Source: Gautieria morchelliformis (Eukaryota > Basidiomycota > Agaricomycetes > Gomphales > Gomphaceae). Taken from it: 64,000 bases of DNA. Positions within the stretch are counted from its first letter, which is position 1. Every line of letters begins with the position of its first letter. The position numbers and the translations under genes are program-made. Below are positions 17,621 to 64,000 of the stretch, piece after piece. The notes beneath the pieces were generated by a model. The model made no database searches. It saw nothing but the letters and a program-made list of their open reading frames with translations, and was not told where the DNA came from. The stretch spans positions 1-64,000 of the forward strand of contig WHVA01000319.1 in NCBI GenBank assembly GCA_015179125.1, read 5' to 3'.

Positions 17621-18894
17621 TGTCATGACGCGTTTATTCCTCATAACTCAGGTGCTCTGTCCTGCCATTTCTCACCCCATTTCCATGTTCGTTCTGATCG
17701 CCATTGTCATGTTCGGCAACCGATGTTCGCCGATTTGCGCCCGTTACCACCGCCACGCCGTTAAACGCACGACCAACGGCTTTGGACTGACTTGACAAGT
17801 CATCACTGGGTCTACTACCTCCTCTGTTCGACCCTCTTCTGATGGTGTTCTGATAGTTGGATTGTCATGACCAGTGTATTTCCTACACCTTGGTATCCCC
17901 ATTTTCCCTTTCGCTACTCCTCCTCAGTATTCGCTCGGCTTCGCCCTCTACCCGACCTCTCCTCCACTATGTCACCTCTGTTCGCCCTTCCTTGCATTTC
18001 GCCGAACGGCTAGTCGCTGCTCGCATCATTCGCCAGCAGGCACACCATCAAATATGATCGATACCATTCACCCGGCATGATGGTTCATCATTAACCCCAT
18101 CGTCTTCTTAATCCAACCCCATTGGGCGTTCGAATGGTCAAAGTGTGTTCGCAGGGCATCCCTTCCATAGGTGGTGCGGAATCAACCCAGTAGACCAAGA
18201 GTCCGTGCAGGGTAGCATGTATGTGGGTCCCAAGACATGGTTTTGTCCATAAGTGCCTTCGCCACCTTTACTCTCCGCCGTTTCATGTTCCCCCTCTTTT
18301 CACATTCTATTGTATGTTTATTTCATCTATGCTGTATCATGACTGCACACCCCTATCCAACCCTGACTTGTGACGGCCTCTTTCCTATTCGCCGATACCT
18401 TACGAGCATTCGATATAAGTAGTTTACATTCGCATGTATATTCCCCAGTTCAATTATCATACGTCGTCCATCTTGTGCAAACTTGACCTCGCTGTGATCA
18501 TCATCTTGAGCCTTTCCTTGAAGATTTCTATCTTCAAACAGCCAAGGACTTAGGCATCACTGGTGAGTTCTCATACTTCATCTTCGTTACCTTAGCCTTC
18601 GAACAATTTTCTGTGCTGTTGGCGAAGGGCTCTGAAGGAGCACCTTCGCCAGCGAAGGGACCGTCGAAACTTAGACAGCCCTTCTGCGATATCTTGTACG
18701 TTACGTCGTCAAGTGCTGCGAGCTATTTCGCTACGACTGTAGATAGGGTGAGCCCCGTTCGGGCAACCCTCTTGTTTCATGAACATTCATCGGTTCACCT
18801 ATTCGCTGAACGGCATACCTATTCGCACAAGTTATTCGGGCATTCCCTGTGTTCACTAATACACGATATTAACGCCTAAAAACCAATATTGACA
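17621..18894 (+). repeat. Gypsy-1 5' LTR
   Basis: Starts TGTCATGACG and ends TTGACA (TG...CA), about 1.27 kb. The same sequence recurs at 23764-24115 (partial), 62482-63481 (about 1.0 kb) and, inverted, at 63482-64000. Confidence 0.85.
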
Positions 18895-18940: not shown

Positions 18941-21150
18941 ATGTCATCTACACAACAAGAAAACCCTGTTGTCCATAGAACCCGCTCGACAGGTCCAGTT
19001 CCTACCCCAGCACCACTCCAGAAGCCAGCAGCTTCCGCCTCGTTCCCTTCACAAAATCCCACAGAGGACATCATCCCTTTCTCCCGCCTCGTCGCCATGT
19101 CTGCATCTCAGCCTACACCACATCATCCGGTCCCCGAACACGCATCTCCACCTCATTTCGACGTTCAACGGCAGCTGACTCCAGGCAAACAACACTTCTC
19201 CCCTCCGTGACCACTCTCAGCCAACACCCCCACATCTAGTCATCGACCCAGTGCCGATTCTTTACGCCGCTTACTTGCTCCTAATTCGCCCAGCGGTCGC
19301 CTACAGGACCCTAGCACATTTCAAGGACCTTATCCTTCTAGGATTCCTCGGATTGTCGGTACTTCAGGACTCCGATTACAATCGGCCTTCGCACGACCCC
19401 ACTTGCCACCTGCTTCGCCTAGTCATACTCCGAACCCCTTTCTCGATGTGCACTACGCCCAGCGTCCTCTTAACCCCCAGCCTACATCTCCTCTCAATTC
19501 TAGGCAAACCACCCCTGTACACGTAGAATCTCGGGCTCACACACCCGCTTCGCACAATTCTTCATCTCATTCGCATCACTCACATGCTTCTTCGCACTCT
19601 TCGCAGGCTCTTCGCAGTCTTCACCATTCAATACATAGTGACCATACTCGAGCCAGCTCTCAACCTACTCCCCCTCACGAGGCACCTGTGGCGGACCAGG
19701 GACATCACGCTGACCCTGCACCCAAAATCTTGGCTATCCGGTTACTGGCCTACCCTATTATGACCTGAATGCTTTGCCTTTTGGTAGTGCCCCACCTCTA
19801 TTCGCAGGACAACCTCACCCGTTTGTGGGACAACCTCCCCTGTACCAACCTCCAGCCCAGATTCCTGCCCCACCTGACGGGCCTGTGCCTCTTCCATTCG
19901 CAGGACAACATCTCCCCTTCGCGGGACAACCTCCCCCGCAACAGCCTCCGGCACAGATTCCTGCCCCACCTGGCGGGCCTGCGCCTTTTCCATTCGCGGG
20001 ACAGCCTCTCCCCTTCGTGGGACGACCTCCCCCGCAGCAACCCCCGGCACAGATTCCTGCCCCACCTGGCGGGCCTGCACCGCCTCCTCCACCACCTCTC
20101 GGGCCACCATTTCCCCATTTTGGAGTGCCACCGATCGGGCCTCCCGGACCACCCGGGCCCCCCGGACCTCCTGGCCCACCTCCACCATTTGGTGGAGGGC
20201 CTTGGCCGCAACCAGGGTTCCCATGGAACCCCTATCATCCCTTTCCTTTCGCCTACCCTCAGGCTGCCCCTGATGGCGATTCCGATGCTGCGAAACCCGA
20301 GAAATTCACAGGGAAAGAACCTCGCCTCCTCCGAACATTCATCGCTAGTTGTATTATGGTCTTCGACAACAAGCCCCGAAAGTTCCAGCAGGAGCGACAG
20401 CGAGTCTCCTATGCAGCATCCTACCTCAGCGACATTGCCTTGATTTGGTGGCAGCCTTTCCTCATTCAGTTCCCAGAACCTCCCATTCGGAGCAACTGGC
20501 TTATCTTTGTCGATGAACTTAATCGTCTTTTTGGTCAGGCCGACATCATCCAAGTGTCCGAGCGAGCTATTCGCAGGCTCAAAATGCTCGACACCCATCG
20601 TGTCGATTGCCACATGACCACATTCGCTGAGTTGTCCTCTTACGTCGAGTGGAACGATGCCGCCCTTTACGACGCCTTCTACAACAGCCTCGCCGAGCGC
20701 ATCAAAGACCACATGCTCTCCTACGAACGTCCCGAAAGCCTCGACGATCTCAAACGTCAGGCTCTTCGCATCGACAATCGCTACTGGGAGCACCAAGGCG
20801 AAAAGCAGATTACAACCTCTATTCGTCCCCCTTCTTCTTCCGAACCTTCTGTTACACCACGTGCTAACGCTCGACCCAGACCCCCTGCTGCAGCCAAGCC
20901 TGACAAACAGAAAGATCTTTCCGGCATCCTCGATGCTACCGGACGTCTTACTGAAGCCGAGAAAGAGCGACGAAAAACCAAAGGCCTTTGCCCTTATTGC
21001 GGCGAACCCCCCACACATCACGCAAAGGGGTGCCACTTCCAAGAGCCTGCCCCAACTACTGGCAGAGCTATCTTCACTCTCGAAGGCGACCCCCAGGTTG
21101 CGATTCTCGAAGAGGTTCCCGAAGATGGCGAAAGCTCTCCCGCGGAATGA
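18941..21150 (+). other. Gypsy-1 gag region
   Basis: The best-kept part is an open frame at 19774-21150: a long Pro-rich N-terminus with repeated PAQIPAPP blocks, a capsid-like gag domain (RLLRTFIASCIMVF, SYLSDIALIWWQPF, YDAFYNSLAERIKDHML) and a C-terminal zinc knuckle with Cys and His (CPYCGEPPTHH...C) near 20991-21040. The N-terminal leader around 18941-19210 is in a separate frame. It is a structural fossil. Confidence 0.8.
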
Positions 21151-21409
21151 TAAGCTCGCGACCCCTCTATGGTGTTAAAAATAGCTCGTTTTAGCCCATC
21201 GAACAACGACCTTACCCACTTTTTCTCAAAATCCTCGCACAAATATCTCCATCTCCTCCTCCTTGTAAAAAGCACACTAGCCACTACTTGTCTCGTTCGC
21301 CGAACACGTACATATCTGTCTCATTCAGAACAAACTCTACTTCGATAGATAGTTTTTCCACATACCACTCTTCAAGTACCTTCGACTTACATTCCGAACG
21401 CTCGCCCCT

Positions 21410-21930
21410 GCTATCCTTGGGTTACGTCCCGAACACGGCGATTGGACAACTCTATTACACCTTGGATCTTCCTCCAGGTGTCGTTTCTTTGTTCGCTCTT
21501 TCCTATCCTGAATCTTCCTGTTTTCGCACAGACGTTCGACATGGACAGCAAACCATTCGCTACTTCCACAAAGGCCTATTGAGCATCACTCTACCGAGTC
21601 CTCCAGACCGCCGCTTTATACATGTCCCCGCTATCCTCGGGTTACGCCCTGAACACAGCGATTGGACAGATTCTATTACACCTTGGATCTTCCTCCAGGT
21701 GTCGTTTCTTTGTTCGCTCTTTCCTATCCCGAATCTTCCTGTTTTCGCACAGACGTTCTACATGGACAGCAAACTATTCGCTACTTCCACAAAGGCCTAT
21801 CAAGCATAACTCTACCGAGTCCTCCAGACTGCCGCTTTATACATATCCCCGCTATCCTCGGGTTACGCCCCGAACACAGCGGTTGGGCAAACTCTATTAC
21901 ACCTCGGCTCTTCCACCAGACGTCCGACAA
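21410..21930 (+). repeat. Tandem repeat of about 218 bases inside Gypsy-1
   Basis: The block beginning near gctatcctcgggttacg occurs at about 21412, 21630 and 21848, each followed by the same attggac...ttcctccag stretch. The units are nearly identical. Confidence 0.85.
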
Positions 21931-22258
21931 GGGTAGCGAACCATTCCTTCTCCCAAACAGCGTCCCGAATCACCCCCACGCATTTTACCCGTCGGGGCGA
22001 CGTGTACCATAAAGGGGGGAATGCCCCCTTCGCACAGCTTCGCCTACTTTTACACGAAGCCCCCGAAGGGACCCAAGGCTTAAAAGCACCCTCGAAAAGA
22101 AAAACAGAAATGAAAAATGCAAGAAAATATTCCTATGTTCAGATTGTTTATACAACAACCCCTACCCTACTTCGTTAATTTTCTGATCATCGCCTGGACC
22201 CCCTCTAGTTCTAAACCCTCTCCGCTCAAATCATTGAGCTTTCGAGACACACTCCTCA

Positions 22259-23583
22259 TCAACTCCTCCGACCTCTCCACCAGATCCTCCACCCTCTCCT
22301 TGCCGGCCAGCGTAGATGTTCGGGCGCCTTCGGGGGTATCTGGGAATCAGCCGAAGATATTCGGGAAGAGGACTCAACAGGCTTACCAAGGACGCCCTTC
22401 GACGAAATCGAGGACGAACCTATCGCCAATCCCTTATCCTTTGCTTTCCCCTTACTCTTCCCTTTCGATCCTCGCTCCTTTACCTCTGGCTCTCGACCAT
22501 CCTTCTCGTCCTTCGCCACGTACTCTAGAGGAGGGATAAGGACTCCATATGAGTTCGGATGGTGTAGGACGAATGGAGAAAGAGGAGACTTACCCTCTGC
22601 CGTGACACAGCCCTGGCGATCACGAATACATCGCCCACACATCTTCCCCGCCTCACCACTGCAGGTGTGACCATAGCGAAGACATCGCCCACACTTCGCA
22701 GGCCTCTTCAATACGTTGTGCTACGGAGAAGCATGCAGTCAGCGGGCGAAGTACTTCGATAAAAATCGATGCTGCTTACCCCTTGATAAATCAGCCACCC
22801 GAGCAAATATGCATGCTCGGGGTAGCCATGTTTCGCCACCGATTGCGGGACCTTGTCCGCTTCGGCAACCAGCGCATTTGCCCGACCCTTGTGACGTTGG
22901 GCAGGAGTTGGCTCGACTGCGACAATCTCGGGCGTAGGGCTCCGAACGCGTTCCTTGCACGGCTTCTTCGGTGTCGGAGCATCGTCGCCCTCGTCCTCGG
23001 ACGAAAGAAACATCGGTTGGCGTTTCGTGCCTATTGGCGGACCTACAGTCGAGGGTTGGAGCGATTCCGGTGGTGCAGCGATGGGCTCAACAACAGGAGC
23101 AGGATCTTTGACAGAGCTCCGAATTAGCCTGGCTAAACGAACAGATACGTGTAACGTACTTTCAAGCTCCTTCGCAGCATCCCCCACTACCTCGGCTTCC
23201 TTCGACAGGCCCCGCAAAGCTGTCGCCCCTTGCACCGCGTTCATCCCGGCATCAAGGAACTCTGGGCTAAGCAGGAAGCCTGCACCCCCGAGCCACTCCT
23301 TCGCTTCCTTCACCTCCTTCACCAAGTCGTCTACATCCGACGGACGTTTGAAGTCGGGATCCGCGATCGCTTCGACACGCAAGGTGGTCTGCAGCTCGGC
23401 CTACGATCGGGTGTTCAGCGAAAGACTTGATCTGAGAGCTACTCTTACCTGAAGCTCTTCAGCTTCGGCAACCCATTCCTCCACCTCTTCGCGCAAGTCC
23501 CCCCGAAAGTCAGGGTGAACCTTCAGCTTTACCCGCGTTCGCTCGATAAGTACGGAGAAAGGAGACGATTCGTTATCAGCCAT
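22259..23583 (-). CDS. Antisense accessory gene of Gypsy-1 with Zn(II)2Cys6-like cluster
   Basis: Lies between pol and the 3' LTR on the strand opposite to gag-pol. The ATG at 23583-23581 opens an acidic/coiled first exon (MADNESSPFSVLIERTR, EEVEEWVAEAEELQ). Three canonical GT-AG introns of 48-69 nt are visible at 23448-23401, 22779-22721 and 22593-22525. The second exon has RPSDVDDLVKEVKEAKEWL, acidic DEGDD and basic KKPCKERVR segments. The third exon holds six cysteines (22693-22607) spaced C-X2-C-X6-C-X7-C-X2-C-X6-C, which fits the fungal GAL4-type binuclear zinc cluster. The tail is rich in Lys, Gly and Ser. No break is visible along this path. A role in DNA or chromatin binding is inferred from the cluster only. 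Because the introns are antisense they would not be removed from the element's genomic RNA, so they can persist through transposition. Confidence 0.68.
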
Positions 23584-23763
23584 GAAGAATCGAGTGGTGG
23601 AATGGACCTGTCGCCTCACATCCCGACGCCTTTTAAAGCCCAGGGCTGAGCCGTGCATGGACCAGGTGGTGAGAGATCGTATCGGAGGCACTATTACGTC
23701 TTAAAGCTCATCCCCTGTCCTAGAGCACTACGTCGTTGGACTCCGAAGCTAGGAGGGGGGTGC

Positions 23764-24115
23764 TGTCATGGCGCGTTTATTCCTCATAACTCAGGTGCTC
23801 TGTCCTGCCATTTCTCACCCCATTTCCGTGTTCGTTCCAATCGCCATTGTCATGTTCGGCAACCGATGTTCGCCGATTCGCGCCCGTTACCACCGCCACG
23901 CCGTTAAACGCACGACCAATGGCTTTGGACTGACTTGACAAGTCATCACTGGGTCTACTACCTCCTCTGTTTGACCCTCTTCTGATGGTGTTCTGATAGT
24001 TGGATTGTCATGACCAGTGTATTTCCTACACCTTGGTATCCCCATTTTCCCTTTCGCTACTCCTCCTCAGTATTCTCTCGGCTTCGCCCTCTACCTCGAC
24101 CTCTCCTCCACTATG
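23764..24115 (+). repeat. Gypsy-1 3' LTR, truncated
   Basis: The first 350 or so bases of the LTR, preceded by a polypurine tract (aggagggggg). The rest is missing and DUF6533-locus sequence follows at once. Confidence 0.85.
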
Positions 24116-24408
24116 AAAAACCATGGCGACAGGTTCTTGCGGGGAACCCATTATGTCCAATACTTGCAGTGATTATTCCTGCCGATGGGTATATACACGT
24201 CCACACATTTTCCACGGAGAAATAATAACCCCGGAGGGTATCGTGTAGATCATGTCGCACCATCGTTAGCGTGTCCTGTGACAGTCTGGATACTGTCGCT
24301 GATCTTCGCCTCGGGTCTAGGACCAGCCTCTGGATCTACAAGCCATGTTCCATGTCCTATCATGTCTGTAGAAAATTCGGTAGGTAGTGAGATCCGGAAC
24401 ATGGTGGT

Positions 24409-26383
24409 TGATGCGAATTGTCCCCTTTTGACTAGCCTCGAAGGCCTCACCACTTGCAGTCTCGACCAATATAGTAGGAGTCGAGTGGATTTCATCAAAG
24501 AGTTCCAATCTGCCGCATATATGACTTGATGCTGCAGAGTCCACCAACCACATATGAGACCTGTCTTGTATGGCTGATAGAGCTGATGTTTTTGTGGATA
24601 GGACAATACTTTTGGATTGGTCTTCTTCTTGTTCAGAGATATATGCCATCATAACAATATTCTTTGTCGATGCATTGGCAAATCTTGATGATGGCACTGA
24701 GGAATTATTTGAAGAATTGTTGGCTCCTGTAGGCACAGTTTGATGCATCTGTGAGGCAGCTGTTGGAGAGTTCCAAACAGGAGCTGATCGATTGCCACTT
24801 CCTCCCGGCCAAATACCCCCTCTTCCACCTCTTGCAACACTTGCTCCTCGACCCCTGCCTCCCCATGGGTCTTGTCCTGCCAGCCCCCCTCCTGGTGCGA
24901 AACATCTTGAAGCTGAATGACCCTCCTTTCCACAATTATTGCAGTTGTAAAATGGTCTCTGATTGTTATTTGTTGGATAGGGGGTGTTCCATGGTTTTGT
25001 GGTGGGGTATGCAGAGTTATTAGATCGTCCTGCACCCTTTGATTGTACCACAAAAGCCGTAGCTGCTTGATTCGATATTTCCACCGCACTTAAATCCGCC
25101 TCATGAGCCTCTAGCTTCTCCTCAATGACATCTATGTCCCCAGTGATCATCCTGATGGTTTGAGCGATAGGCCTCCAGGATTCAGGTACATTCCTGAGGA
25201 CAGTGGCAGCATGGGTAGAATCAGCAATGATCTCACCCATTTTTGCCAATTGATTCCTGTACTCCTTCATTATAGTGAGGTAGGAGGAGACAGATTGTCC
25301 TTCGGTCATATGATAATTTTCATATCTTGTGCGAATGATGCTGATTTTGCTAGGGTCTGTAGACTCGAATTTCCTTGTCAGGACCTCCCATGCTATAGCT
25401 GAATATTCTGTAGAGTCGATGGCTGTTTGGAGTTCAGGGGTAATACACAGGAGTATTTGGCTATAAGCCACATTGTTCCTGTCGTGCCACTCGTCCTGGA
25501 GCTGAGTTAATGGAATATTACCAACAGTCTCAACCCCATTGAGGATTACTACAACCCTGTTGGTGACATCTGGATAGTCATCTGCTCCTGTGATCATTCT
25601 GTAAAGGCCTCTGTCTCGAGAAGTAGCCAACAACTCTCTCTTCCAAGACATCCAGTTATCCTTACTCAGCTTTGGTTTTATATCCCTAAACTTGTGGATA
25701 TCATGTTTAGGATGAGGGAGGGCGGTCATGATCTGTTGGGCCATGAAAAGTCGATGAGACTCTTAATCTAATATAAATCAGAATAAGGGGTTGGGGTCGA
25801 GTGAATAATGATGTGATAAAGATCTCAAGCAGTGTTCTGGTGAGAGATAAGAGCAATGTTCTAGAGTTCTAGATTTAAGCAATGTTCTTGGTGCAATAAG
25901 AGTTGAGGAGGAAACAATAATAGTCCAAAGAAGCTTATAACTCGAAGCTCTAGGGAAAAAGATTGTTAAGTCACTTGTTTATTCGTATCTAGAGTCCAAG
26001 TATTTAAGCAGTGTAGGATAGGGGGAAATAATCATGTGTAAGTGTAATAATCATGTGAAATATGATGCTACTTAGGGGATAGGAGCATAATGATGTCAAC
26101 AGTGATGCAACAGCTCCTATATGGCTAATCTCTTCATAAATGATGGAGATGATGCAATAAATGATGTCAGACCAGTGGAATGACGACTCGACTCGATAAT
26201 AGGCATGAAAATGAACTCTTAACTCAATGGTACGCATGTCTGCGCCTTGACTCGATGTTTGACTCATGGTACGCATGTATGCGCCTCGACTCGACTTGGA
26301 ATGATGGGAAAATAAGGTGAGTGATAAGAGAAATGAGAAGTGAGATTGTCCTGATTGAAACTGTCCTTCCTCCTCCAATAACA
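24409..26383 (-). mobile_element. Copia-1: short 5'-LTR/gag/protease element
   Basis: On the minus strand an LTR begins TGTTATTGGAGG at 26383, followed by gag from about 25744 (KLSKDNWMSWKRELL, TDPSKISIIRTRYENYHMTEG) with the zinc knuckle CNNCGKEGHSASRC and the start of the aspartic protease (MWLVDSAASSHICG). Integrase, RT, RNase H and the 3' LTR are absent. It is nevertheless flanked by a 5-bp duplication GTGGT (24404-24408 and 26384-26388) inside the DUF6533 copy. Gag is well preserved, suggesting a rather young insertion. Confidence 0.82.
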
Positions 26384-45330: not shown

Positions 45331-45933
45331 TAGTTCCCTTGTTCAGTATTCATTAATGACCCTGTACGTCTTAGCTACATTGACTGTCATCTGAACTCGC
45401 TTAGCACCTCCACCTTAGTTGTTATCTTGGCTCTTTATATAAAACACCTGCTCGTATGTGCTGTATTCTACAATCAGGTTACTGGTTTCAATATGTTCTA
45501 CCTTCACTTGAGGATCCTGTTCTTAGTGCATTGACCCCTTGCAAAATTGCTCTCTCTAAGCTTTCTGCTCCACCTTCCACCTTCTGACTCTGTCTCATGC
45601 TCCCAACCTCCAACTTCTAACAGTGACTTCACCTTTGAAACCTCAAGTCTTTGCCAACCTCAGTTGCAACTCTTCCAGCACTTCTGACGTCCGAAATACT
45701 TACCACCAGTAGTTCATTGGGGCATAATGCATACATGGAAGCCTCAGTCCATTCTAGACCCCACACAAGGTTTCATAATATGTAACAATACATCAGCATA
45801 CAGGTACTGAAACTCAGTCAATATATCATTACATATTAAAAATAGCTAGCTCAGTGTCCTGGGATACGGCTTACAAGGACCTCTTCCTTGCCTCCATGAC
45901 TCGAACCTCCAGCTCTTCAGCATCATTTCATCA

Positions 45934-47770
45934 GCCCTGATTCTGATAGGTCTCAGCAAAATTTCCCATGGCCTTCAGGGGGTCAGGATGCTCCTCACCA
46001 AGGATCCTCTTCCTTGCCTCCATAACTTGAAGCTCCAACTCTTCAGCATCCTTCCATCGGCCCCGATTCTTATAGGTCAAGGCAAGATTGCCCATGGCAA
46101 TCAGGGTGTGAGGATGCTCCTCTCCAAGGTGTTAGCAACTAGGGGCTATGGCAGGGAAGGTTCGGTAGAGTTCTTAGAAAGCTAGAATCAAATACACTCT
46201 CTCAGTGAATTTATTGTCACTGATATATTAATACAGTACCTAGAATCAAATACACTACATGATTTTCAGTCAACATGCTATGTAAATATGAATAATACTA
46301 CTCGCCTCTCTCAGTGAATTTATTGTCACTGAGAGAGGAGTACAATCCTGTCTCAGAAGGCATATACGTGCACCCGGCCCTTTAGCGCCCAAGGGCTCGC
46401 GCGTCGAAGTCATTTCAAACTCCGCTGGGTGCAGCCGCCTGTGAAAATAGAAATAACAAAGTGGAATGGAGAGATAGGGAGTGACTGGAAAATTTCGAAA
46501 ATAAGCAGAGAAATGGATGCATGGTACAAGAACAATGTGAGAAACAATTGGAAACACCACACACTAAATTGAACATATTATGCTTGATTTTGGTGCAGGA
46601 GCATAAATGCACCCAACACAAGGATCCTCTTCCTTGCCTCCATGACGTGAACCTCCAGCTCTTCAGCATACTTCCACTGGCCCAGACTGTGAGAGGTTGA
46701 GGCAAGGTTTCCCATGGCCATCAGGGTGTCAGGATGCTCCTCACCAAGGATCCTCTTCCTTTCCTCCATGACTTGAACCTCCAGCTCTTCAGCATCCTTC
46801 CACTGGCCCTGATTTCGATAGTTTGAGGCAAGGTTGCCCATGGCGATCAGGGTGTCAGGGTGCTCCTCACCAAGGATCCTCTTCCTTGCCTCCTTGACTT
46901 GAACCTCCAGCGCTTCAGCATCCTTCCACCGGCATTGATTCTGATAGGTTAAGGCAAGGTTGCTCATGGCTAACTGGGTGGCATGATGCTCCTCACCAAG
47001 GACCCTCTTCCTTGCTTCCATGACTCGAACCTCCAGCTCTTCAGCATCCTTCCACTGGCCCAGACTCTGATAGGTTACAGCAAGGTTGCCCATGGCCATC
47101 AGGGTGTCATGATGCTCCTCACCAAGGATCCTCTTCCTTGCCTCCATGACTTGAACCTCCAGCTCTTCAGCATCCTTCCACTGGCCCTGATTTTGATAGG
47201 TTGGGGAAAGGTTGCCCATGGCCATCAGGGTATCAGGATGCTCCTCACCAAGGATCCTCTTCCTTGCCTCCATGACTTGAACCTCCAGCTCTTCAGCATC
47301 CTTCCACTGGCCCAGACTCTGATAGGTTACAGCAAGGTTGCCCATGGCCAGCAGGGTGTCAGGATGCTCCTCACCAAGGATCCTCTTCCTTGCCTCCATG
47401 ACTTGAACCTCCCGCTCTTCAGCATCCTTCCACCGGCATTGGTTCCGATAGGTCAAGGCAAGGTTGCCCAAGGACATCAGGGTGTCATGATGCTCCTCAC
47501 CAAGGACCCTCTTCCTTGCCTCCATAACTTGAATCTCCAGCTCTTCAGCATCCTTCCACCGGCCCTGATCCTGATAGATTGAGGCAAGGTTGCCCATGGC
47601 CTTCAGGGTGTCAGGATGCTCCTCACCAAGGACCCTCTTCCTTGCCTCCATGACTTGAACCGCCAGCTCTCCAGCCTCCTTCCACCTGCCCTGATTCCAA
47701 TAAGTTTTGGAAGGTTACCCATGGTGATCAGGGTGGAAGGGTGCTCCTGACCAAGGACGCTCTTCCTTGT
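45934..47770 (-). repeat. Near-identical 126-bp TPR-coding tandem array
   Basis: About eleven to twelve units of 126 bases (42 codons), nine or so between 46619 and 47770 and the rest beyond the LTR (45934-46129). Adjacent units differ at only a few bases, at recurring positions such as the residues after MGNLA and before NQG/SLG. Confidence 0.85.
46130..46618 (-). mobile_element. Solo LTR, family L2, copy B (489 bp) inside the TPR array
   Basis: The exact same length as copy A and about 97% alike by eye, in the inverse orientation. Flanked by CAAGG (46125-46129 and 46619-46623), a duplication of the TPR unit sequence ccaaggatcc. Confidence 0.85.
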
Positions 47771-50610
47771 CTCCATGGCCTTAACCTCGAGCTCTTCAGC
47801 ATCCTTCCATCGTCCTGCTTCATGGAACACTTTCGCAAAATTTTCTGCCATGTTTGCATCTATAGTTTTTGTATGAAGCTCATTGATATGAGCCAGGAGA
47901 GATCTCCTAAAAGTATAATCCTCTGTACTGTCTTCATCTGGGATAGAAAGGGCTAGTATCTGCATTGTACACCTTTGCTTATTCTCCTGCTCTGCTGCCT
48001 CTAGGTTATCTCGAGCCCAGGCATGTACTAGTGGATGAAGGGAATATGTACTGTCTTCTTCATTAGTACTAATTAATGAGTATGAAGCTAATTCATTAAT
48101 GATCTCCTGAAATTGAAAGTCACTCCAGCCACCATCTGTCATTTGAAAGTTATGTAAAAGTCGTTTTGCATCATCAAATGTCCATCAGGATCCCTCAGAG
48201 AAGCCTTTCGAAAGGTGCTTTTGGAAATCCCCCTCCAGTGTAGAAATGCACTCAGATGTAGCAGGGTTGCTGCATTGTGACTTAGCCTTTTAAAGCTAAT
48301 TTCCCATGTTGCATATACTGCCCATGGATAATCATCCACCATTTGTACTGAGTGCTTGCTCATTAGTTGAGCACGATCCTTCTGGAAAATCTTCAGGTAG
48401 TCATTTAAGCTGCACCCCTTTGAGATATAGGCACCAGATTGTACAATGGCCAGGGCAAGATAACCAAGTTCTTTGACAATCAGAGAAGCCAGGCTACGAT
48501 TCTTTACAGAATATTTGACTCTAGAAAACACAAGGAGCAAATGAATCGCTTCCTCATCATTCATACTTGACACATGACAGTTGGAGCTGGGTGCGTGCAC
48601 ACAACACTCCACATTGCGACTTGTCACAATGATATTTCCATGCTTGCATGGTGGGAAGTACTTTCGAAGGTTTATGTCACGGTCATCAGCATTGTCCATG
48701 AAGAGCAACCATCCTTGGTGTCGTCCAGAAAGCCAGAGAAGAGCATCTTTGGCAGTCTGACCAATACACTCTTCCCGAGCAATATCTTCAAGGCCAGACT
48801 CCATAGTGGTCACACTACTTGCATCAACATAATAGACTCTCCAGAAACTAAACATAACACAAGTTAGTCCAAACATAACAGACCCAGGTAAACCACCCCA
48901 CTGTTGATAAAACTTTTCAATGAATCTCAATGCAATCTGTGTTTTTCCGGCCCCACCAAGTCCATATAAGACAAGGATGCACTGTTCCTCCTTAACAGTG
49001 GATGTCTGGTCTGGGAAGAAATATCCCTCAAGTTGCAAAAGGATATCTTCTCTCCCAGTAAATCTGCTTGTTGGTGGAGGACAAGCCTTATGTGGAGCTC
49101 CATGTTTACCTGACAGCTGGCCAATAGTTCCTGCACCTACAGTGTCTACCATAAAACATATGTCATCAGCTGTGAGGCATTGCAAGTTGTATGCACTAAG
49201 GTGTGTGGCAGCTATCACTTCCCGGCACTCCCTGAGAGCAATGACAGCAGCTGCTACCATCTCATCTACTTTTCCACGCTGAAGATGCTGCAATGTGTGT
49301 GTCTGCACCATGGGTAACTTTTCCCACTGTGCCAACATTACACTCTGCAATCCTTGCTCCACATTGAACCGAAAGTAAAAATTCGGTGCAGATCTGAAAC
49401 GCCGCTCAATTTCCTCTGCTGTTGTCTCACATTCCGTGGTGATCTTCTTCAATGCCTCAATGACACCTAATGGTATGACATTGTTATGCAGACTAGGTGC
49501 CGGCAGGCCAGCAGTGGTGACATGTCCAGTTCCGATACTGATGACGCAAGCAATATGTTGGTGTGGAAATATGTGTTCTGCCTCATTGAGGATTTGCTTG
49601 ATAGGATTGTTGCAGCCCAGGCCACCATCGACGATGGATTCACGCATAAGTGGAATTCCAATGAAAATCCGTTTGAAAAAGGTAGGAGCGGCAGACGTGG
49701 CACGAGCGGCCTCCCATATAGCGCAGTCGAATGATTCGTATTTGTCTACGGTGTACGTACGAAAGAGGCGGGGTGTGCTCATATTATTTGCGGGCATCGC
49801 GCAGACAAAACTGGGCTCCTGTCAGCTATGTACCAAGTCAAGAATGAGCGGCAACGTGAACATACGTTTTGCATACTTCGCTGCTTGGTCTTGGATCGAA
49901 CATGCGTGCGTTAGGGTCGCCAGTCGATTCCTGGATGATCGCCTTGATAGCTTTCTCCAAATTGCTAGCCTTGAACATTCCATCCTTCCAAAATGGTTTC
50001 TTCTCCGAGAACACTTTTGAGGCGAAATTGGCATAGGCTTCGATTGCTTTATCTACGGGGAGGCGGAGGCGGCCCAGAATAAGTGCTATGAGCCTGGATG
50101 GACCGTATTAGAGAGCGATGGTGATCTTTAAGCAAGTAACTTACCCGCCTGTACTCGTACCGCAGATTAAGTCGAAATATTCGCAAGGAAGGGCACCGTG
50201 GGTCGTCCTTCCTGGCGCTGGATTCTTTGCATGATTTCTTGCAGAATGATAAGTTCGGATAAGCCACGGATGCCGCCGCCATCTGCTGAGGGTGTCAGAA
50301 GGTGTCATATAACAAGCGTGAAAACCTTACCGAGTGAAAGCAACCTGAGCCCGGCACCTCTTTGCGTCGTGGGGTTAGATTCGATGCCCGTTCCCCTTGT
50401 AGAAAGAGCAGAAGTGGACATCGATACGACCTATTCACGAAGATTCGTCAGATAGTTGGTTCCGTTGATTCTTTAGCCTCCTGGATAAACCTTGCTTACC
50501 TTCGAGGGTAGCAAAGAGGGTTCTACGATCGGCGGCGTTTCGTCATGCGCGGATGAAGGAAAAGCGTCGGTGACCTGTTTATTGTGGTCCATTGAGGAGT
50601 TAGAGGTCAT

Positions 50611-55560: not shown

Positions 55561-55946
55561 CAGAACCAGATGACTGTTATGTCTACCGTCCTGCAGCAGT
55601 TGACGCGGGAAATGCGGTGGCGGAACGATCTGGTCCAGGACTGAATGGATGCGCGGCTGCGGGAGCAGGGAATTGGGGCGGAAGCGGGTCCGAGCGGGGG
55701 GGCGGAAACGAGGGAAAGGGTGGAAACGGAGTTGGTGAGTGTCGAGGTAGGAGAGGCAGAAAAAGAGCTGGAAGTGGAAAAAGAGGTCAAGGGGGAGACA
55801 ATGAGGGAGGAGTAGGGGTGTCAAAAGACTTGTAATATAATTTCTTGAAGTGTCAGAAATAAGCGTATCGGAATAATAGTCGGATTTTAATAATGACTTG
55901 AGAACTGTAAGAAAGCAATGGATGTCGGAAACGAGGTCGGAAATGA

Positions 55947-57491
55947 CTAGGGCGCGGAAATGGGGCCAGGCTTATCAGGATAAGACTTGTGGAAATCAGA
56001 GACAAGGTCAGCGGCGTGGTCTAGTTCCGTGGCGGAAATCCACGAGGTCTCTTCGTCGGTGTTTTCATAGCCTGCCCACTTGACTAGGTACTGGAGTTGG
56101 CAGCGGTATCGTCTGTCGAGCTTGGAGTTGAGAATTTCCGAGCTCTCGTATTCCGGTTCTCCGTCAATGACGACTGGCGGAGGCGGAGGTTGTTCTCGAT
56201 TCGGAATTGTATTCGGAACTGCGGGCTCAAGCATGGAGACATGGAATACCGGGTGTACTGCGCGCATATTGTCAGGAAGTCTGAGAGTGAAAGAACGACT
56301 GCCGGCCTTAGCGATGATGTCGTAAGGGCCAAGGTATTTCTCAGAGAGCTTCTTCGAGGGGCGAGTGGTGCGGAAGTTTTCAGCTTTGACGAAGACTTTG
56401 TCGCCAATCTCGAATGCCGGTTGCGGAAGTCGTTTCCGATCGGCGGAAGTTTGGTATCTCTTTTGTGCAGCGGAAATGTTCTCTCGGAGGTGCTGATGAA
56501 GGTCGTCGAGTTCCACAACGAAATCTCGGGCTCTTGCAGAGGCGAGGTCGCGTTCAGGGTGGATGGCGAGATTCGGGTGGTAGCCATTGTTGCCATAAAA
56601 GGGTGAAATTCCGGTGGTAGCGGAAGGCGCATTGTTGTAGGCAAATTCCGCGAGCGGAAGAAGGTCGGACCAATTGCTGTGTTGGTAGTTGCAATAGATG
56701 CGGAGATACTGTTCAAGGGTCTGATTAGTACGTTCCGTTTGTCCGTCTCCTTCGGGATGATAACCGGAAGTGAAGTGGAGCTTCATGTCGAGAGCCTTGC
56801 CGAGTGTGCGCAAAAAGGAGGACACGAATTCTGATCCACGGTCGGAAGTGACATGGAAAGGGATTCCATGCTTGGAAAAGACGTGGAGCACGAAGAGCTG
56901 TGCGAGCTGGGCGGAAGTGATGGTGTCATAGGTCGGAATAAAGATGGACTGCTTTGTAAGGCGGTCAATGATTACTAGAATGGTATCATAGCCAGATGAC
57001 TTAGGAAGTTTCTCAATGAAATCCATGGATATCGAATTCCACGGTTGTTCCGGGATCGGAAGTTGCTTCAGGAGGCCGTAAGGTTTGTGACGTTGAGGCT
57101 TGGCTCGCATACAGGTGGTGCATGACTTGCAGTAGTCTTGGACCATTGTGCGGAGGAGGGGCCAAGTATAGGTACGTCGGATTATGTCGAGGGTTTTGTT
57201 CTGGCCTTGGTGTCCTGAGAGCGGATGATCGTGGCTTTGCTGGAGTACGCGAAGTTGTAGATCATTGGTATCCGGAACGTAAATCCGGGACTTGTACCGG
57301 AGAAATCCATCGGAATCAAGGGACCATCCAGGACTGGTGGGGTCATCGAGGTGGGCTGCAGAGGTGGGGTCAGAACGGATGTCGGAATGGAGAGACTCGG
57401 TGTCCATAATGATTGAGGCGTGGAGTAGCGGAAACTGCAATGCTGTGGCACGCCTCAAGACGTTGATCACAGCGAGGTCAAGTTTGCACAA
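55947..57491 (-). other. Gypsy-3 integrase with C-terminal chromodomain
   Basis: One open frame of 514 codons. It has the H2C2 zinc-binding motif (HDHPLSGHQG ... YCKSCTTCMRAKP), the DDE catalytic core (SMDFIEKLP, TSDRGSEFVS, GYHPEGDGQTERTNQ), the GPY/F module (KYLGPYDIIAKAG, HPVFHVSMLEP) and a chromodomain (LQYLVKWAGYENTDEETSW). The chromodomain places it among chromoviruses, which target chromatin marks (family knowledge). Confidence 0.9.
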
Positions 57492-58073
57492 GATGATGGT
57501 GAACCCTTACTTCTCTCAACCAAGCCGATCGAGAATCACTCCTCTGAGTCCTCTATATCGCTTCCTAACAATCTGATCCGTCCATTTTCAGTCACGAAAG
57601 AATGCATAATAGAAACCGAATCTATTCGACCAACAGCAGAGCCCGTTCCGAGTCATTCTCGCCCCTGTACACCATGTACAGAATCACTGACCGATGACCA
57701 TCTCCCATTCCATTCTTCGCCTCCTGACTCACCTCCGACAAAGAGGGCACACACCGCATATAAGCCTAATCAGTGCGTCCGCCTTCGAGCTAATCGTAAA
57801 ACTTGGCGAAGAAGACACCTTCATGTTAAACATGCACCCTACCATCCCTGAACCGACTTCGCTTCGTGCTGTAGGCAACGCCCCAGCCCCGACTACACTC
57901 CTCCACGAGAAACCCCTACCGAAAGACGAGTTAGAGATGTTCAGGGCTGTGGTACCATGACTTCTTCGATATCTTTTTGCATGCTAAAGCCAAAGACTTG
58001 CCCCCACATCGTCCCTATGACCACACCATCGAGATCGAGAACGATGGCACACCACCTCACGGTCCCATATACC

Positions 58074-58768
58074 TGTCACAAGTATCACATATTCACACAA
58101 TCCCCCCTCCTTTTCGTCTGCATCTTCGCAACAATCCACCGTCCTCCTGTTAGCGCCGCGCGCACACTCTTACGATCCTCACCTGATAATCCACCAGTCC
58201 ACACACGTCTACCCAAGCCCACACACGCACGTCCACATAGCCCACATCACACCATCAGACATCGATGCCCGCGGATCCATCCCTGAGCCCAAGAGCAGCC
58301 CGAGAGCGAGTGATCCATGGAGTGGCACAGTGGCTGAGCCACTACGCATGGACCTTTCCTTTTCCCATTTATCTTCCGCCACACATCACACATTTCTGAT
58401 ATTCCATTCCCATTCGATAGGTAGAATACACATGCGTAACAACAACCGGCACTCCAATCCCCATAGCACATGTCTCGCACATCCACCTACCGGCGCTGGT
58501 AACATCCCTTTCGACCTAGCACACCACACACAGGGGTTAAATAGCTGTCGCATGTATACTAGAACACCAGTCAATGGTACTCACTGTTTTCCAAAAAGAT
58601 TCTCTCATCTCGAAGTGCAGTTACATCTGCAACGACTCTATCAACAAGCATATACTTCTCATATACTCTCAGTCACTTGACTCTTGAACACAGCTCGATT
58701 CGGTTTCACTTGAAACTTGAGTTATATTTCTATCGAACCCAAAACATTCATATCCAAACATCTTATTA
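58074..58768. mobile_element. LTR-like insertion in Gypsy-2 (695 bp)
   Basis: Separates two halves of a continuous pol motif (PPHGPIY before, LSNSELEALCEYLDDM after). Flanked by ATACC (58069-58073 and 58769-58773). Starts TGTCACAAG and ends CATCTTATTA, so the right end is not a canonical CA. Probably a solo LTR of another family. Confidence 0.6.
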
Positions 58769-61700
58769 ATACCCACTCTCGAACAGCGAATTAGAAGCGC
58801 TCTGCGAATATCTCGATGACATGCTTGGCAAGGGATTTATCTGCTCCTCCCAATCACCTGGTGGTGCCCCTGTTGTGTTCACGCAGAAGAAGGATGGTAC
58901 ACTGTGAATGTGTGTGGACTATCAAGGGTTGAATCGTATCACGTGAAAGAACAAGTACCCTATCCCACTGATTCTGAGCCTTATTGACCAACTCAAAAGC
59001 GCGAACATCTATACCAAATTCAACCTTCGCGCCGGGTTCAATAATGTTCGGATCGCCTCTGGCCAAGAGTGGAAGACAGCCTTCTGAACTCGATATGGGT
59101 CCTTTGAATATCTCATCATGCCGTTCGGTTTAACGAACGCTCTGGCGACATTCCAGCACTTCATGAATGATATCTTCCAAGACATGGCTGACGTCTTCGT
59201 TGTAGTCTACCTCGACGACATCCTTATCTTCTCCAAGAACAGGAAGGATCACTTGGAACATGTCCGAATGGTCCTCGCCTGTCTTCGGAAGCACAACCTC
59301 TTCATAAAGCAAGAGAAGTGCCTTTTCCATTCGAACTGGGTCAAGTTTCTCGGATTCATCATTTCCCCTGCTGGGGTCTCCATGGACATCGAAAAGACAG
59401 CTGCAATCACAAAGTGGCCTGTACCGACGAACGTTCGCAAAGTCCAATCATTCCTAGGCTTTCTTCTACAGAATATTCATCATTTCGTTCTCAGACATTG
59501 TCCTGCCACTCACCCGCCTGACCAGAAAGGATATTCCATTCGCCTGGGACGTGAAGCAGCAGGAGGCTTTCGAAGCACTCAAACCCGCATTCTCACAGGC
59601 TCCAGTCCTCATCCACTCCGACCCAAGTAACCTGATTGTCATTGAAACAGACGCCTCCGACTACGCCATCGCCGCCATCATCTCCCAGATCACCCCCTCT
59701 GATGGTGGTATCCACCCGATCGCCTTCTATTCGTGAGGAATGGCACCTGCCGAAATGAACTATGAGATCTATGACAAGGAGCTGCTCACCATCTTTTGCG
59801 CCTTCAAGCAATGGCAAAACTACCTCGAAGGGGCATCCCACATCATCCTCGTCCTCTCTGACCACAAGAACCTTGAGTACTTAGCGACTACAAAACAGCT
59901 GACCTGACGACAGGTCCGTTGGTCCGAACACCTGTCAGGGTTCAACTACATCATTCGCTACCGAGCTGGGCGACTTGGCACAAAGCCGGATGCATTGACC
60001 CGTCGGGGCGATGTGTACCCTAAAGGGTAAAGGGGGGATGGTGCTTACGCATTGGCGAATCCCCACAACTTCCAGTCGATGTTTAAAACCGGGCAACTCA
60101 TTCGTGCCATCATCCTTGGCTCTGCATCACTGTTGACATCCATCCAACAGGGCCAGTTGACCGATCCCTTGTCCTCAGCCGACATCACCCGTCTTCAGTC
60201 TTAGTCGATGGTGGTCCCCCTTCCGAACGCGAAGCCAGACCCTTGGTCACTTGGAGAGGATGGCAAAACGCTGTTATACAAACAGCGAACATATGTCCCC
60301 GATCATAATGATATTCGCTTGGACATCCTTCGCTCGCTGCATGATCATCAGTTAGCAGGCCACCCAGGATCAGCAAAACGATGAAGAACATTCGGAGACA
60401 GCATCATTGGCCAAACATGTCCACCTTCGTCACCAACTATATCGGCTCCTGTTCCAAGTGTCACCACGCTAAATCCATTCATCACAAACCCTTCGGTCCG
60501 CTTCGCTTTCTCCCCATCAGCCAACGACCTTGGGATTCAATCTCCATGGACTTCATCGAGGGGCTCCCCCAGTCAGATGGACACGATATGATCCTCGTCA
60601 TTGTTGACAGGCTAACGAAGATGGCCCTGTTCATTCCGACATTCTCAGACATCGATTCAGGGGATGTCACCATGCTCTTCCTTCGCCATGTATTCGCTAA
60701 ACACGGTAGCCCCAGCGACATCATCTCCGATTGAGGGAAGCACTTCACATCCCGATTTTAGACCTCTCTCTGAGAAATCCTCGGCATCAAAGGCAATCTT
60801 TCTACAGCCTACCACCCCCAAACCGATGGACAGACCGAATGAGTAAACCAGATCCTCGAGCAGTATCTCCGAGTCTATATCAACTACCAGCAGGACGATT
60901 GGGTCGACCCTTTGCCTCTCGCCGAATTCGCCTACAACAACACAGCCCATTCGGCAACCCAGGTCACACCCTTCTTCGCCAACAAGGGGTTCCATCCAAA
61001 GCTCGAAGTATCGCTCACTTCGGTCGCTTCCGAGGACGTTTATCGCCAGTCGGCAGATCTCAAGGACCTTCACCAATACCTTTGAGATCAAATCAAGAAA
61101 TCAATTACCCAGTACACTTTGGCCACAACCAGTCACCGCATTCTGATGCCTGAGTTTCAGGTCGGCGACAGAGTATGGCTCGACTCGCGAAATATTCGCA
61201 CAAAACGGCCTTCGAAGAAACTCGACCACCGAAGACTTGGCCCATATCCTATCACGGCTAAAATATCTTCTCATGCGTTTCGCTTAGGCTTACCATTGGA
61301 CCTTCGCCAGATCCACCCTGTGTTTCATGTATCCCTTCTTGAACCCGCCACGACATCTACCATCCCAGGTCGACATGCAGACCCTCCACCTCCTATCAAA
61401 ATTGACTCCGCCGACGAGTACAAGATCACGAAAATCCTCGATAGTCATGACACTCTGTTCACATTCTACCTATATATCCAACTCCCTTGATCAATCTCCT
61501 CTCAATCCTCACCCAACTCCCTTCGACTCATTCTACTCCTGCAACCGACGCCTCGTCAGACGCTCTGAGCTCCCCATCAACCTCTTTGCTCCCCCCTCGA
61601 TGGCTAGTGAGAGTACCCACGGCTTGAGCGTCATACTTAGCCATCGTCTTGACCATACCCCTCGCTATCCGCGCCCTCTTGCCTTCCCGATCAGGAGCGA

Positions 61701-61804
61701 AGCAGATGCGCAGTCACCTCACAGTAACAGGCTCTGCAGCTTTTGCCGACCCAGGCGCACCCCCATCCGACTGCGAACCAGAAAGGGGGACTTCACCGAA
61801 TCCA

Positions 61805-62260
61805 TCACCAGGTTAACATAGTCGTCACAGGAATAATTGAGAAAACCATACCTTCCGGGTCCTTCCTAGTCACCTCCCTTTCTTCGCACACCTTCGATGT
61901 CAGCATAAAGATCGGAGCCGGAGTCGAATCAATATCCGCTTCTGCGGATACTGGTTCCAATGTCGATGCCGAACTCTCCAACCACACCCTCTCTTTCTGG
62001 ATCTCCTTCACCAGCTCGTCTACTTCGGACGGTCTTTCGAACGTTTGGTCGACCACCTCCTTGACCTGCAGCATTTTCCGAAGCTCCTCCTAGACCTCAT
62101 CGTTGAGGGAACAAAAGCTAATAAAAGAAAGAGCGGTACTCACTTGAACTCCTGCCGCATCGACCAACCACTGCTCCACATCCCCACGCGACTCTCCCCG
62201 AAGCTCTGGCCTAACCCTCTACACGGTCTGCGATCAATTGAGGAGAACTGAGTACCCAGG
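61805..62260 (-). other. Remnant of the antisense accessory gene in Gypsy-2
   Basis: The minus strand holds FERPSEVDELVKEIQKERVWL, matching FKRPSDVDDLVKEVKEAKEWL of the Gypsy-1 antisense gene at the same distance from the LTR. No six-cysteine cluster could be found, so only the N-terminal half remains. Confidence 0.65.
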
Positions 62261-62481
62261 TGTCATCATAGGGGCAGTACGCTTGGCTGGGGTGCTTAGA
62301 TGGGTCCCATAGCCCCGTTCCGCGCCGCGTTTTTAAACAGAAAAAGAAGTTGTGCACGGGCCACGCAGCTACACAGGGCCCAGACTTCAGAGATCCCATC
62401 GGGGGACCCATTACATCTTTAACGGTTCCGCCCCATCATAGGACGCAGCGTCGTTGGACTCCGAAGCTAGGAGGGGGGTAC

Positions 62482-63481
62482 TGTCATGACCTGTCTATTT
62501 CTCTTACCCCACTGTCTCTATGTTCCCCCTCGTCACTCCCTAGCATCTTCGCCAGAGTTCGCCTCACCCTCCGACCACTCCTCCTCTACGTCCACTCTAT
62601 CCGCTGTTCCCCCCATTCTCCAAACCGCTATTCGCTGCTCGCACATTTCGCCAGCAGGCACACCATCAAATACGATCGATATCATTTACCCGGCGCGATG
62701 GTTCATCACTAACCCCATCATCTTCTTAATCCAACCCCTTTGGGTGTTCATATGGCCAAAGTGTGTTTGTGGGACGTCCCTTCCGTAGGTCGTGTGGGAT
62801 CAACCCAGTAAACAAAGAGCCCGTGCAGGGTAGCACGTATGCGGGTCCCAAGACATGGTTTTGTCCATAAGTGCCTTCGCTCCCTTTACTCTCCATCGTT
62901 TCATGTTCGCACTCTTCCCTCACTCTATTGTATGTTTATTCCATCTACTTGGTATCATGACTGCGCACCCCTATCCAACCCTGACTCACGATGGCCTCTT
63001 TCCTATTCGCTGATACCTTACGAGCATTCGAATAAGTAGTTTACATTTGCATGTATATTCCCCAGTTCAATTATCATACGTCGTCCATCTTGTGCAAACT
63101 TGACCTTGGTGTGATCCACGTCTTGAGCCTTCTCCTGGAGATTTCTATCTTCGACCAGAAGAGGACTTAGGCATCACTGGTGAGTTCTCATACTTCATCT
63201 TTGTTACCTTAGCCTTTGAAATATTTTCTGTGCTGACGGCGAAGGGATTGTCGCTACTTAGACAACCCTTCCATGACACCTTGTACGTTACATCGTCAAG
63301 TGCCACGGGCGATTTCGCTATGCCTGTAGATAGGGCGAGCTCCGCTCGGGCAGCCCTCTTATCTTGTGAACATTTATTGGGTCACCTATTCGCCAAATGG
63401 CATACTTATTCGCACAAGTTATTCGGGCATTTGCTGTGTTCACTAATACATGATATTAACGCCTAAAAACCAATCTTGACA
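62482..63481 (+). repeat. Gypsy-2 3' LTR (1.0 kb)
   Basis: Starts TGTCATGACC after a polypurine tract and ends CTTGACA. Aligns with the Gypsy-1 5' LTR (17621-18894) with a net shortening of about 270 bases. Confidence 0.85.
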
Positions 63482-64000
63482 GCGCTCCTTTGGAGCCCTT
63501 CGCTGACAGCACAGAAAATAGTTCAAATGCTAAGGTAACAAAGATGAAGTATAAGAACTCACCAGTGATGCCTAAGTCCTCTTCTGGTCGAAGATAGAAA
63601 TCTCCAGGAGAAGGCTGAAGACGATGATCACAGCGAGGTCAAGTTTGCACAAGATGGACGACGTATGATAATTGAACTGAGGAATATACATGCGAATGTA
63701 AACTACTTATATCGAATGCTCGTAAGGTATCAGTGAATAGTAAAGAGGCCGTCATGAGTCAGGGTTGGATAGGGGTGCGCAGCCATGATACAACATAGAT
63801 GAAATAAACATACAATAGAGTGAAGGAAGAGTGTGAACTGAAATGACGGAGAGTAAAGGTGGCGAAGGCACTTACTTATGTATGAAACCATGTCTTGGGA
63901 CCTGCATACATGCCACCCTGCACGGACTCTTTGTCTACTAGGTTGATCCCACACGGCCTGCGGACGGTACGTCCCGCGAACACATCCTGGCCATATGAAC
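63482..64000 (-). mobile_element. Inverted partial LTR of the Gypsy-1/2 family, runs off the right edge
   Basis: Reading the minus strand from 64000 gives gttcatatggcca... to ...gcgaagggctc, matching the middle of the 17621-18894 LTR in reverse. It begins inside the LTR, not at its end, directly after the Gypsy-2 LTR, giving a tail-to-tail arrangement. Confidence 0.8.

What the first reader, a model, noticed from the sequence alone, without database searches (positions are those of the whole stretch)
22259..23583. Antisense, intron-bearing Zn(II)2Cys6-like gene inside Gypsy-1
Between pol and the 3' LTR, on the strand opposite to pol, lies a gene with an ATG, three canonical short introns and a six-cysteine cluster with GAL4-type spacing (C-X2-C-X6-C-X7-C-X2-C-X6-C). 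It is the best-preserved part of an otherwise wrecked element, which suggests selection or recent activity. Antisense introns would survive passage through the sense RNA, so the gene must be expressed from its own or the 3' LTR antisense promoter. A retroelement-borne regulator that might bind LTRs or chromatin would be novel.
Basis: partly seen in the sequence, partly recalled or inferred. Interest (0 to 1): 0.85.

Follow-up and report, generated by a model that had tools for sequence, protein, structure and literature searches.

The report
Antisense accessory gene in split retroelement
A jumping element in a probably fungal genome carries, on its opposite strand, a spliced gene for a cysteine-cluster protein that selection has kept across many copies, and the element family looks divided into two halves, one with the capsid gene plus this gene and one with the enzymes.

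Summary
Window 23583-22167 (-) encodes about 379 aa with five predicted introns, not three; the six-cysteine cluster is there.

It recurs at about 107 places in this genome. Across copies the antisense frame is kept (dN/dS 0.24; gag 0.28; sense frames 0.68-0.88), introns diverge like third codon positions, and a TATA-like block sits 54 nt before the ATG.

The host element has LTRs, gag and this gene, but no pol. Related loci suggest why: a few gag-pol copies exist, one of which I saw with the antisense gene, while two reduced forms dominate. A type has capsid plus the long antisense gene and no pol. B type has protease-RT-integrase-chromodomain, mostly no detectable capsid, and a shortened antisense gene. 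They share LTRs at 90-94% identity; both occur in this window. Another chromovirus here carries an unrelated-looking antisense six-cysteine gene.

Zn2Cys6 membership failed the Pfam test. Antisense genes before the 3' LTR are published (Grande, Retand, Boty). New to me are the five-intron cysteine-cluster gene and its place in an apparently split element. A nuclear regulator of the shared LTRs is my best guess; expression and binding are untested.

The parts
17621..18894 (+). 5' LTR of the A-type element (about 1274 bp)
   Evidence: blastn to the L020 LTR over 17621-18894; direct repeat with the 3' LTR
19714..21150 (+). gag (capsid) open frame, sense strand
   Evidence: PF03732 Retrotrans_gag E 2.9e-7
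21406..21919 (+). 221-bp tandem repeat between gag and the antisense gene; 21413-21605 resembles a pol stretch of L026
   Evidence: TRF; blastn 74% over 193 nt to L026 3577-3764
22167..23583 (-). antisense gene, six exons: 23583-23449, 23400-23160, 23105-22780, 22720-22594, 22524-22387, 22339-22167; introns 23448-23401, 23159-23106, 22779-22721, 22593-22525, 22386-22340
   Evidence: codon test
22607..22693 (-). six-cysteine cluster CX2CX6CX7CX2CX6C
   Evidence: translation; alignment of 19 copies
23631..23637 (-). TATA-like block TTTAAAA, 54 nt upstream of the ATG
   Evidence: 15 of 18 aligned copies by regular expression
23751..23760 (+). polypurine tract AGGAGGGGGG
   Evidence: sequence; exact G-run plus LTR start at the same distance from the cluster exon (1032-1078 nt) in 11 of 27 sequences tested
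23764..24115 (+). 3' LTR, truncated
   Evidence: (97.4% over 352 bp)
57495..63482 (+). B-type relative in the same window (truncated on the left, interrupted at about 58074-58768): RT, RH, integrase, SH3, 3' LTR
   Evidence: blastn 87-94% to L033, L034, L038, L039; RVT_1 and SH3_Tf2-1
61805..62089 (-). shortened antisense gene of the B-type copy (second exon)
   Evidence: ORF of 94 aa; place listed at 76% identity
55089..55403 (+). antisense six-cysteine open frame of another chromovirus
   Evidence: Zn_clus E 0.0029, 18.1 bits, cut-off 21; 150 places listed
55947..57506 (-). integrase with chromodomain of that other chromovirus
   Evidence: Integrase_H2C2, SH3_Tf2-1, Chromo above cut-off

Best explanation
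Window 23583-22167 (-) is an accessory gene of a Ty3/Gypsy chromovirus family, transcribed against gag from its own promoter between the 3' LTR and the ATG. Shown by sequence: the gene model, its codon-level conservation, its fixed place beside the polypurine tract and LTR, and its linkage to gag. Inferred: it makes a nuclear protein in which the six cysteines bind zinc, the flanking predicted helices pair molecules, and the protein acts in trans on the LTRs or chromatin of the family, tuning when genomic RNA is made. Its host copy belongs to the A half (capsid plus this gene) of a family whose enzymes sit on B elements with similar LTRs; a trans-acting product would serve both.
For: Gene: five introns with conserved ends (GT..AG in 16, 18, 18, 16 and 16 of 18 copies); codon positions .094/.073/.203, introns .186; dN/dS 0.24 against gag 0.28. 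Place: 47 of 92 gag places have the gene downstream on the opposite strand, 30 of the 47 pairs at 1476-2055 bp, against 7 other arrangements within 9 kb. Ancestral order: L026 has gag, protease-RT-integrase and the antisense gene between integrase and LTR. Enzyme half: chromodomain integrase in L033 and L034. Shared LTRs: each B LTR is 90.2-93.7% identical to its nearest A LTR, and B LTRs fall inside a clade with 13 A LTRs (support 97/98). Regulator: published antisense proteins of similar position are nuclear (Grande) or predicted to bind DNA (Retand) (PMC7264820, PMC11963269, passages).
Against: No expression data. Zn_clus below threshold; PSI_integrin scores better on the same exon (best E 0.004). 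AlphaFold model of the cluster is poor (pLDDT 62), so no fold search was run. No relative in the PDB by profile. 13 of 18 copies are broken under the model, though gag matches also often hold stops. A CTRAY branch-like motif is missing in intron 4 in 17 of 18 and in intron 1 in 12 of 18 copies. Helices and nuclear location were not tested. Most capped lists are lower bounds.
Confidence: 0.5

Rival explanations
1. The protein binds RNA rather than DNA: a nucleocapsid-like or RNA-export helper that works with Gag. Keeping it on the capsid half would follow naturally.
For: Linked to gag in 47 of 92 gag places but to L026-like integrase in 7 of 84; the cysteine cluster does not pass as Zn2Cys6.
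Against: It is made from a different transcript than the genomic RNA, so no cis preference is expected; gag has a zinc-knuckle-like CPYCGEPPTHHAKGC of its own (sequence; no zf-CCHC hit).
Confidence: 0.2
2. An anti-silencing factor: the protein counters host chromatin or RNA silencing of the family, as the transposon-encoded factor of an Arabidopsis DNA transposon does (title seen in a reference list of PMC8704663; details recalled).
For: Trans-acting benefit to all copies with the same LTR would explain retention in pol-less elements (inference).
Against: No sequence similarity tested to such factors; no methylation data.
Confidence: 0.12
3. Antisense transcription itself, or its double-stranded RNA, is the function; the protein is incidental.
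For: Such a role is discussed for plant elements (PMC7264820, passages); the promoter block is conserved.
Against: Codon positions and dN/dS show protein-level selection.
Confidence: 0.06
4. A captured host gene carried as passive cargo, or a host gene into which elements inserted.
For: Introns are typical of a host gene.
Against: Same place beside PPT and LTR in 11 of 27 sequences by exact pattern; of the six loci mapped, five show LTR sequence in order and one (L031) does not; selection matches gag.
Confidence: 0.07

Closest known systems
Antisense additional ORFs between pol and 3' LTR (aORF-3R): maize Grande gene23, rice RIRE2, Silene Retand, PvRetro13
   Same: Gypsy element, antisense gene next to the 3' LTR, multi-copy, own promoter reported for gene23 (PMC7264820, PMC11963269, passages)
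   Different: Here about five introns and a six-cysteine cluster; 'intron' does not occur in the main text of either paper; host element lacks pol
Boty brtn of Botrytis cinerea
   Same: Fungal Gypsy element with an antisense gene (PMC7264820 section 5; PMC8365987 passages)
   Different: The original paper was not held, so its protein and any introns could not be compared
RLG_Cereba / RLG_Quinta of wheat
   Same: Pair with similar LTRs, one partner coding only Gag plus an unknown domain (PMC11302176, passages)
   Different: Cereba is described as autonomous; the B type here mostly lacks a detectable capsid domain; no antisense gene mentioned (term absent)
TR-GAG elements
   Same: LTRs and Gag but no pol (PMC8704663, passages)
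   Different: Those have a single ORF; the A type carries a second, antisense gene
HTLV HBZ
   Same: Antisense regulator of a retroelement (mentioned in PMC11963269, passages)
   Different: No similarity tested; PMC7264820 places the HTLV antisense promoter inside the 3' LTR, here the TATA-like block lies outside it

Membership tests
Zn(II)2Cys6 (PF00172) | Six cysteines with CX2CX6C...CX2CX6C spacing (pattern recalled) | tested here: met
   CX2CX6CX7CX2CX6C; the six cysteines are all present in 15 of 19 aligned copies (L026, L029, L031, L032 each miss at least one)
Zn(II)2Cys6 (PF00172) | Passes the curated Pfam score | tested here: not met
   No hit for the whole protein; exon 13.6 bits against 21; 14 of 19 copies hit at E <= 10, best 0.03; the two halves alone give none
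Zn(II)2Cys6 (PF00172) | Basic residues between cysteines 2 and 3 (recalled) | tested here: not met
   LRYGHT in the window copy; the more basic run is between cysteines 5 and 6
Zn(II)2Cys6 (PF00172) | Two zinc ions per cluster | not testable with these tools
   needs purified protein
aORF-3R antisense accessory genes | Antisense, adjacent to the 3' LTR, in many copies of a family | tested here: met
   order integrase-gene-LTR seen in L026
aORF-3R antisense accessory genes | Lies between pol and the 3' LTR | tested here: inconclusive
   True in L026; the window element and A type lack pol
aORF-3R antisense accessory genes | Transcribed from its own antisense promoter | not testable with these tools
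   only a TATA-like block
Chromovirus | Integrase with chromodomain | tested here: met
   In B-type L033 and L034; the window A element has no integrase
TR-GAG | LTRs and Gag, no pol, no other gene | tested here: not met
   A second, antisense gene is present
Autonomous / non-autonomous pair (Cereba/Quinta kind) | One partner codes all proteins | tested here: inconclusive
   Two B copies inspected lack a capsid domain; 69 of 71 contiguous Pro-rich-to-protease places have no gag hit within 4 kb upstream, from capped lists; 8 of 93 gag places have protease downstream

The most novel reading that the evidence does not exclude
An obligately bipartite LTR retroelement: A elements supply capsid and a long antisense zinc-cluster regulator, B elements supply protease, reverse transcriptase and integrase plus a short antisense protein that shares the N-terminal part but lacks the cluster. 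The long and short forms could pair, so each half would control the other through the shared LTRs. The six-cysteine cluster would be a form of Zn2Cys6 with its halves in swapped order, arisen in more than one chromovirus lineage.
Probability: 0.15. Interest if true: 0.87.

Novelty: new variant of a known kind. Interest (0 to 1): 0.6.

Why it matters
If the gene makes a regulator, fungal Gypsy elements carry their own DNA- or chromatin-level control, encoded where introns survive retrotransposition. The codon test gives a firm case that a fungal antisense accessory gene is selected as a protein. The apparent split of capsid and enzymes onto two element types with similar LTRs would make cooperation between retroelements, usually framed as parasitism, open to direct test.

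Tried and rejected
Three-intron and four-intron models: rejected because copies with 52- and 53-nt versions of the second intron would shift frame. An intronless copy at C241, suggested: rejected, the contiguous match came from loss of half the cluster, introns kept. Sense-strand coding as the cause of conservation: rejected. AlphaFold of the cluster exon: pLDDT 62, not used further, no fold search run. PDB by sequence and by profile: nothing credible. IMG/VR scan: 8 pattern matches, none confirmed. Homology between the two antisense families: hhalign probability 0.4%, not supported, though the cysteines fall in register. Swapped halves: for the second family the Pfam alignment pairs the first protein half with profile 15-37, and AlcR (1f4s) pairs both halves in swapped order at E 8.5; suggestive only. 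Shortened gene in B copies as a selected protein: weak. Of 76 places at 63% identity or more, 67 have no stop, but codon positions are .086/.094/.155 in its second exon and .08/.105/.13 in its first, 4 of 12 homologous first exons hold stops, and L034 is out of frame in the second. L025-type integrases: only 2 of 37 rows entered (of 151 listed) lie near the second antisense family.

Rows dropped or lists cut: gene list of 108 rows picked by eye, clustered to 107; 84-86 of the 151 integrase rows used; 93 of 127 gag rows; 35 rows plus the window copy; one search scored 150 of 4056 candidates, 101 of 2231, 117 of 2650, 150 of 520. Results against the split: 8 of 93 gag places have protease downstream and 3 of 92 have L026-like integrase; two of these, C243 and C970, have gag 90-91% identical to L020, so gag-pol copies need not all be old, although each of the eight holds stops in its gag match. 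Papers: three searches aimed at antisense cysteine-cluster genes in fungal Gypsy elements and others listed none that I recognised; only listings were seen for most.

Full report
What is there. On the minus strand, 23583-22167 reads as a gene of 379 codons once five introns are taken out. The fifth intron (22386-22340) opens a C-terminal exon of 57 codons, and a further one (23159-23106) is hidden because it is 54 nt long and open in this copy. In the 18 copies aligned, that segment is 52 nt in 2, 53 in 13 and 54 in 3, so the conserved frames on either side join only if it is spliced. Splice ends are GT..AG in 16, 18, 18, 16 and 16 of 18 copies for introns 1 to 5; two copies have GC at intron 4, and the remaining exceptions include rows whose ends are not homologous. 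The six-cysteine cluster is at 22693-22607.

Is it selected? I aligned 18 copies and used the 13 that are homologous throughout. Pairwise divergence is .094.073 and .203 at codon positions 1, 2 and 3.186 in introns.112 in the stretch between LTR and ATG and .240 after the stop. dN/dS is 0.24 in the gene frame (78 pairs) and 0.88, 0.86 and 0.68 in the three sense frames over the same exons. Gag of 12 copies gives 0.28 over 66 pairs. Near pairs show higher ratios, 0.35 to 0.63 in the six tried, as expected if inserted copies decay. Under the model, 5 of 18 copies are open: the window, L017, L018, L021, L022. A TATA-like block sits 54 nt before the ATG in 15 of 18 copies, and L026 has TTATAAGG at the matching place. 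So the antisense frame is a protein gene with a likely promoter of its own; transcription was not observed.

What carries it. The window element has LTRs at 17621-18894 and 23764-24115 (97.4% identical over 352 bp), a polypurine tract at 23751-23760, gag at 19714-21150, and no pol. Between gag and the gene lies a 221-bp tandem repeat; part of it resembles pol of L026 (74% over 193 nt in the window, 74-78% over 205-223 nt in five other copies apart from one 71% match). The A type therefore probably arose from a gag-pol-gene ancestor by loss of pol. L026 has that ancestral order: gag, protease-RT-integrase, then the gene antisense, then polypurine tract and LTR. Fresh A insertions exist: LTR pairs are 99.8% (L027), 98.6% (L016), 98.4% (L017), 97.8% (L020), 96.0% (L022) and 93.7% (L019) identical.

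Genome-wide. From capped lists, the gene clusters to 107 places and gag to 92. In 47 gag places the gene lies downstream on the opposite strand, 30 of the 47 pairs at 1476-2055 bp; 7 other arrangements fall within 9 kb. Only 3 of 92 gag places have an L026-like integrase downstream, and 7 of 84 integrase places have the antisense gene; about 1.4 gene-integrase neighbours in any arrangement would be expected by chance.

The other half. Two pol-bearing copies, at C936 and C492, carry protease, RT, RNase H and integrase with a chromodomain. The antisense gene there is cut down to its first exons, without the cluster. Upstream of protease both lack the Gag capsid domain and keep only a proline-rich stretch similar to part of Gag. 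In the genome, 71 of 117 protease places run without a break from that proline-rich stretch into protease, and 2 of these 71 have a gag hit within 4 kb upstream; of the other 46, 6 have one. B LTRs are 90.2-93.7% identical to the nearest A LTR and lie inside a clade with 13 A LTRs at support 97/98. The two LTRs of L022 fall in different clades, which suggests template switching. A B-type copy lies in this window at 57495-63482. I read this as a family whose capsid and enzymes now sit mostly on different elements. The caveats are capped lists, only two B copies inspected in sequence, and 8 of 93 gag places with protease downstream, two of which have gag 90-91% identical to L020.

A second case. 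At 55089-55403 (+), opposite a chromodomain integrase at 55947-57506 (-), lies another antisense open frame with CX2CX6CX9CX2CX6C. It scores closer to Zn_clus (E 0.0029 for 104 aa, 0.00053 and 20.5 bits for 37 aa, cut-off 21). Of the 150 places listed, 140 have no stop in the match. Of 36 integrase places tried, 15 have it downstream on the opposite strand, 14 of these at 1443-1475 bp, with no other arrangement within 9 kb. It shows no significant similarity to the first family. Antisense cysteine-cluster genes thus occur in at least two chromovirus lineages of this genome.

What it does. Nothing here shows function. The cluster does not pass as Zn2Cys6 and the model of it is poor. By analogy with nuclear or DNA-binding antisense proteins of plant elements, I favour a nuclear regulator acting on the shared LTRs. 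That A elements keep both gag and this gene while dropping pol says that both products matter for their spread, but not how.

Known and new. Antisense genes next to the 3' LTR are a known kind, fungi included (Boty brtn). Gag-only partners are known, and so is a Gag-supplying partner in wheat. I found no paper, in the searches, on a multi-intron antisense cysteine-cluster gene or on a family with capsid and pol on separate elements; the library is partial and I saw mainly listings. Verdict: a new variant of a known kind.

Noticed in passing
window 54575-55970 (+) with 55947-57506 (-): Another chromovirus with an antisense six-cysteine gene; this copy looks broken, while most listed copies elsewhere are open in the matched part.
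   Followed up: partly
window 57495-64000: B-type element ending in an LTR at about 63482, followed at once by a second LTR-like sequence in inverted orientation running to the window end.
   Followed up: partly
window 24317-25762 (-): Copia-type gag (PF14223, E 4.2e-24) just beyond the truncated 3' LTR.
   Followed up: no
window 45874-47809: 126-bp tandem repeats (42 codons each), up to 9.5 copies; the function of the repeat was not looked at.
   Followed up: no
L035 (C241:157200-159200): A gene copy that lost the middle of its cysteine cluster, probably between the two CGRC repeats, with introns kept.
   Followed up: yes
L022 LTRs at 2626 and 9143 (oriented): The two LTRs of one element fall in different clades of the LTR tree, as template switching would give.
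   Followed up: no
L019 and L022, gag region: Gag holds long arrays of an 11-residue repeat on the opposite strand (RRACEEPAKSL), absent from the window copy.
   Followed up: no
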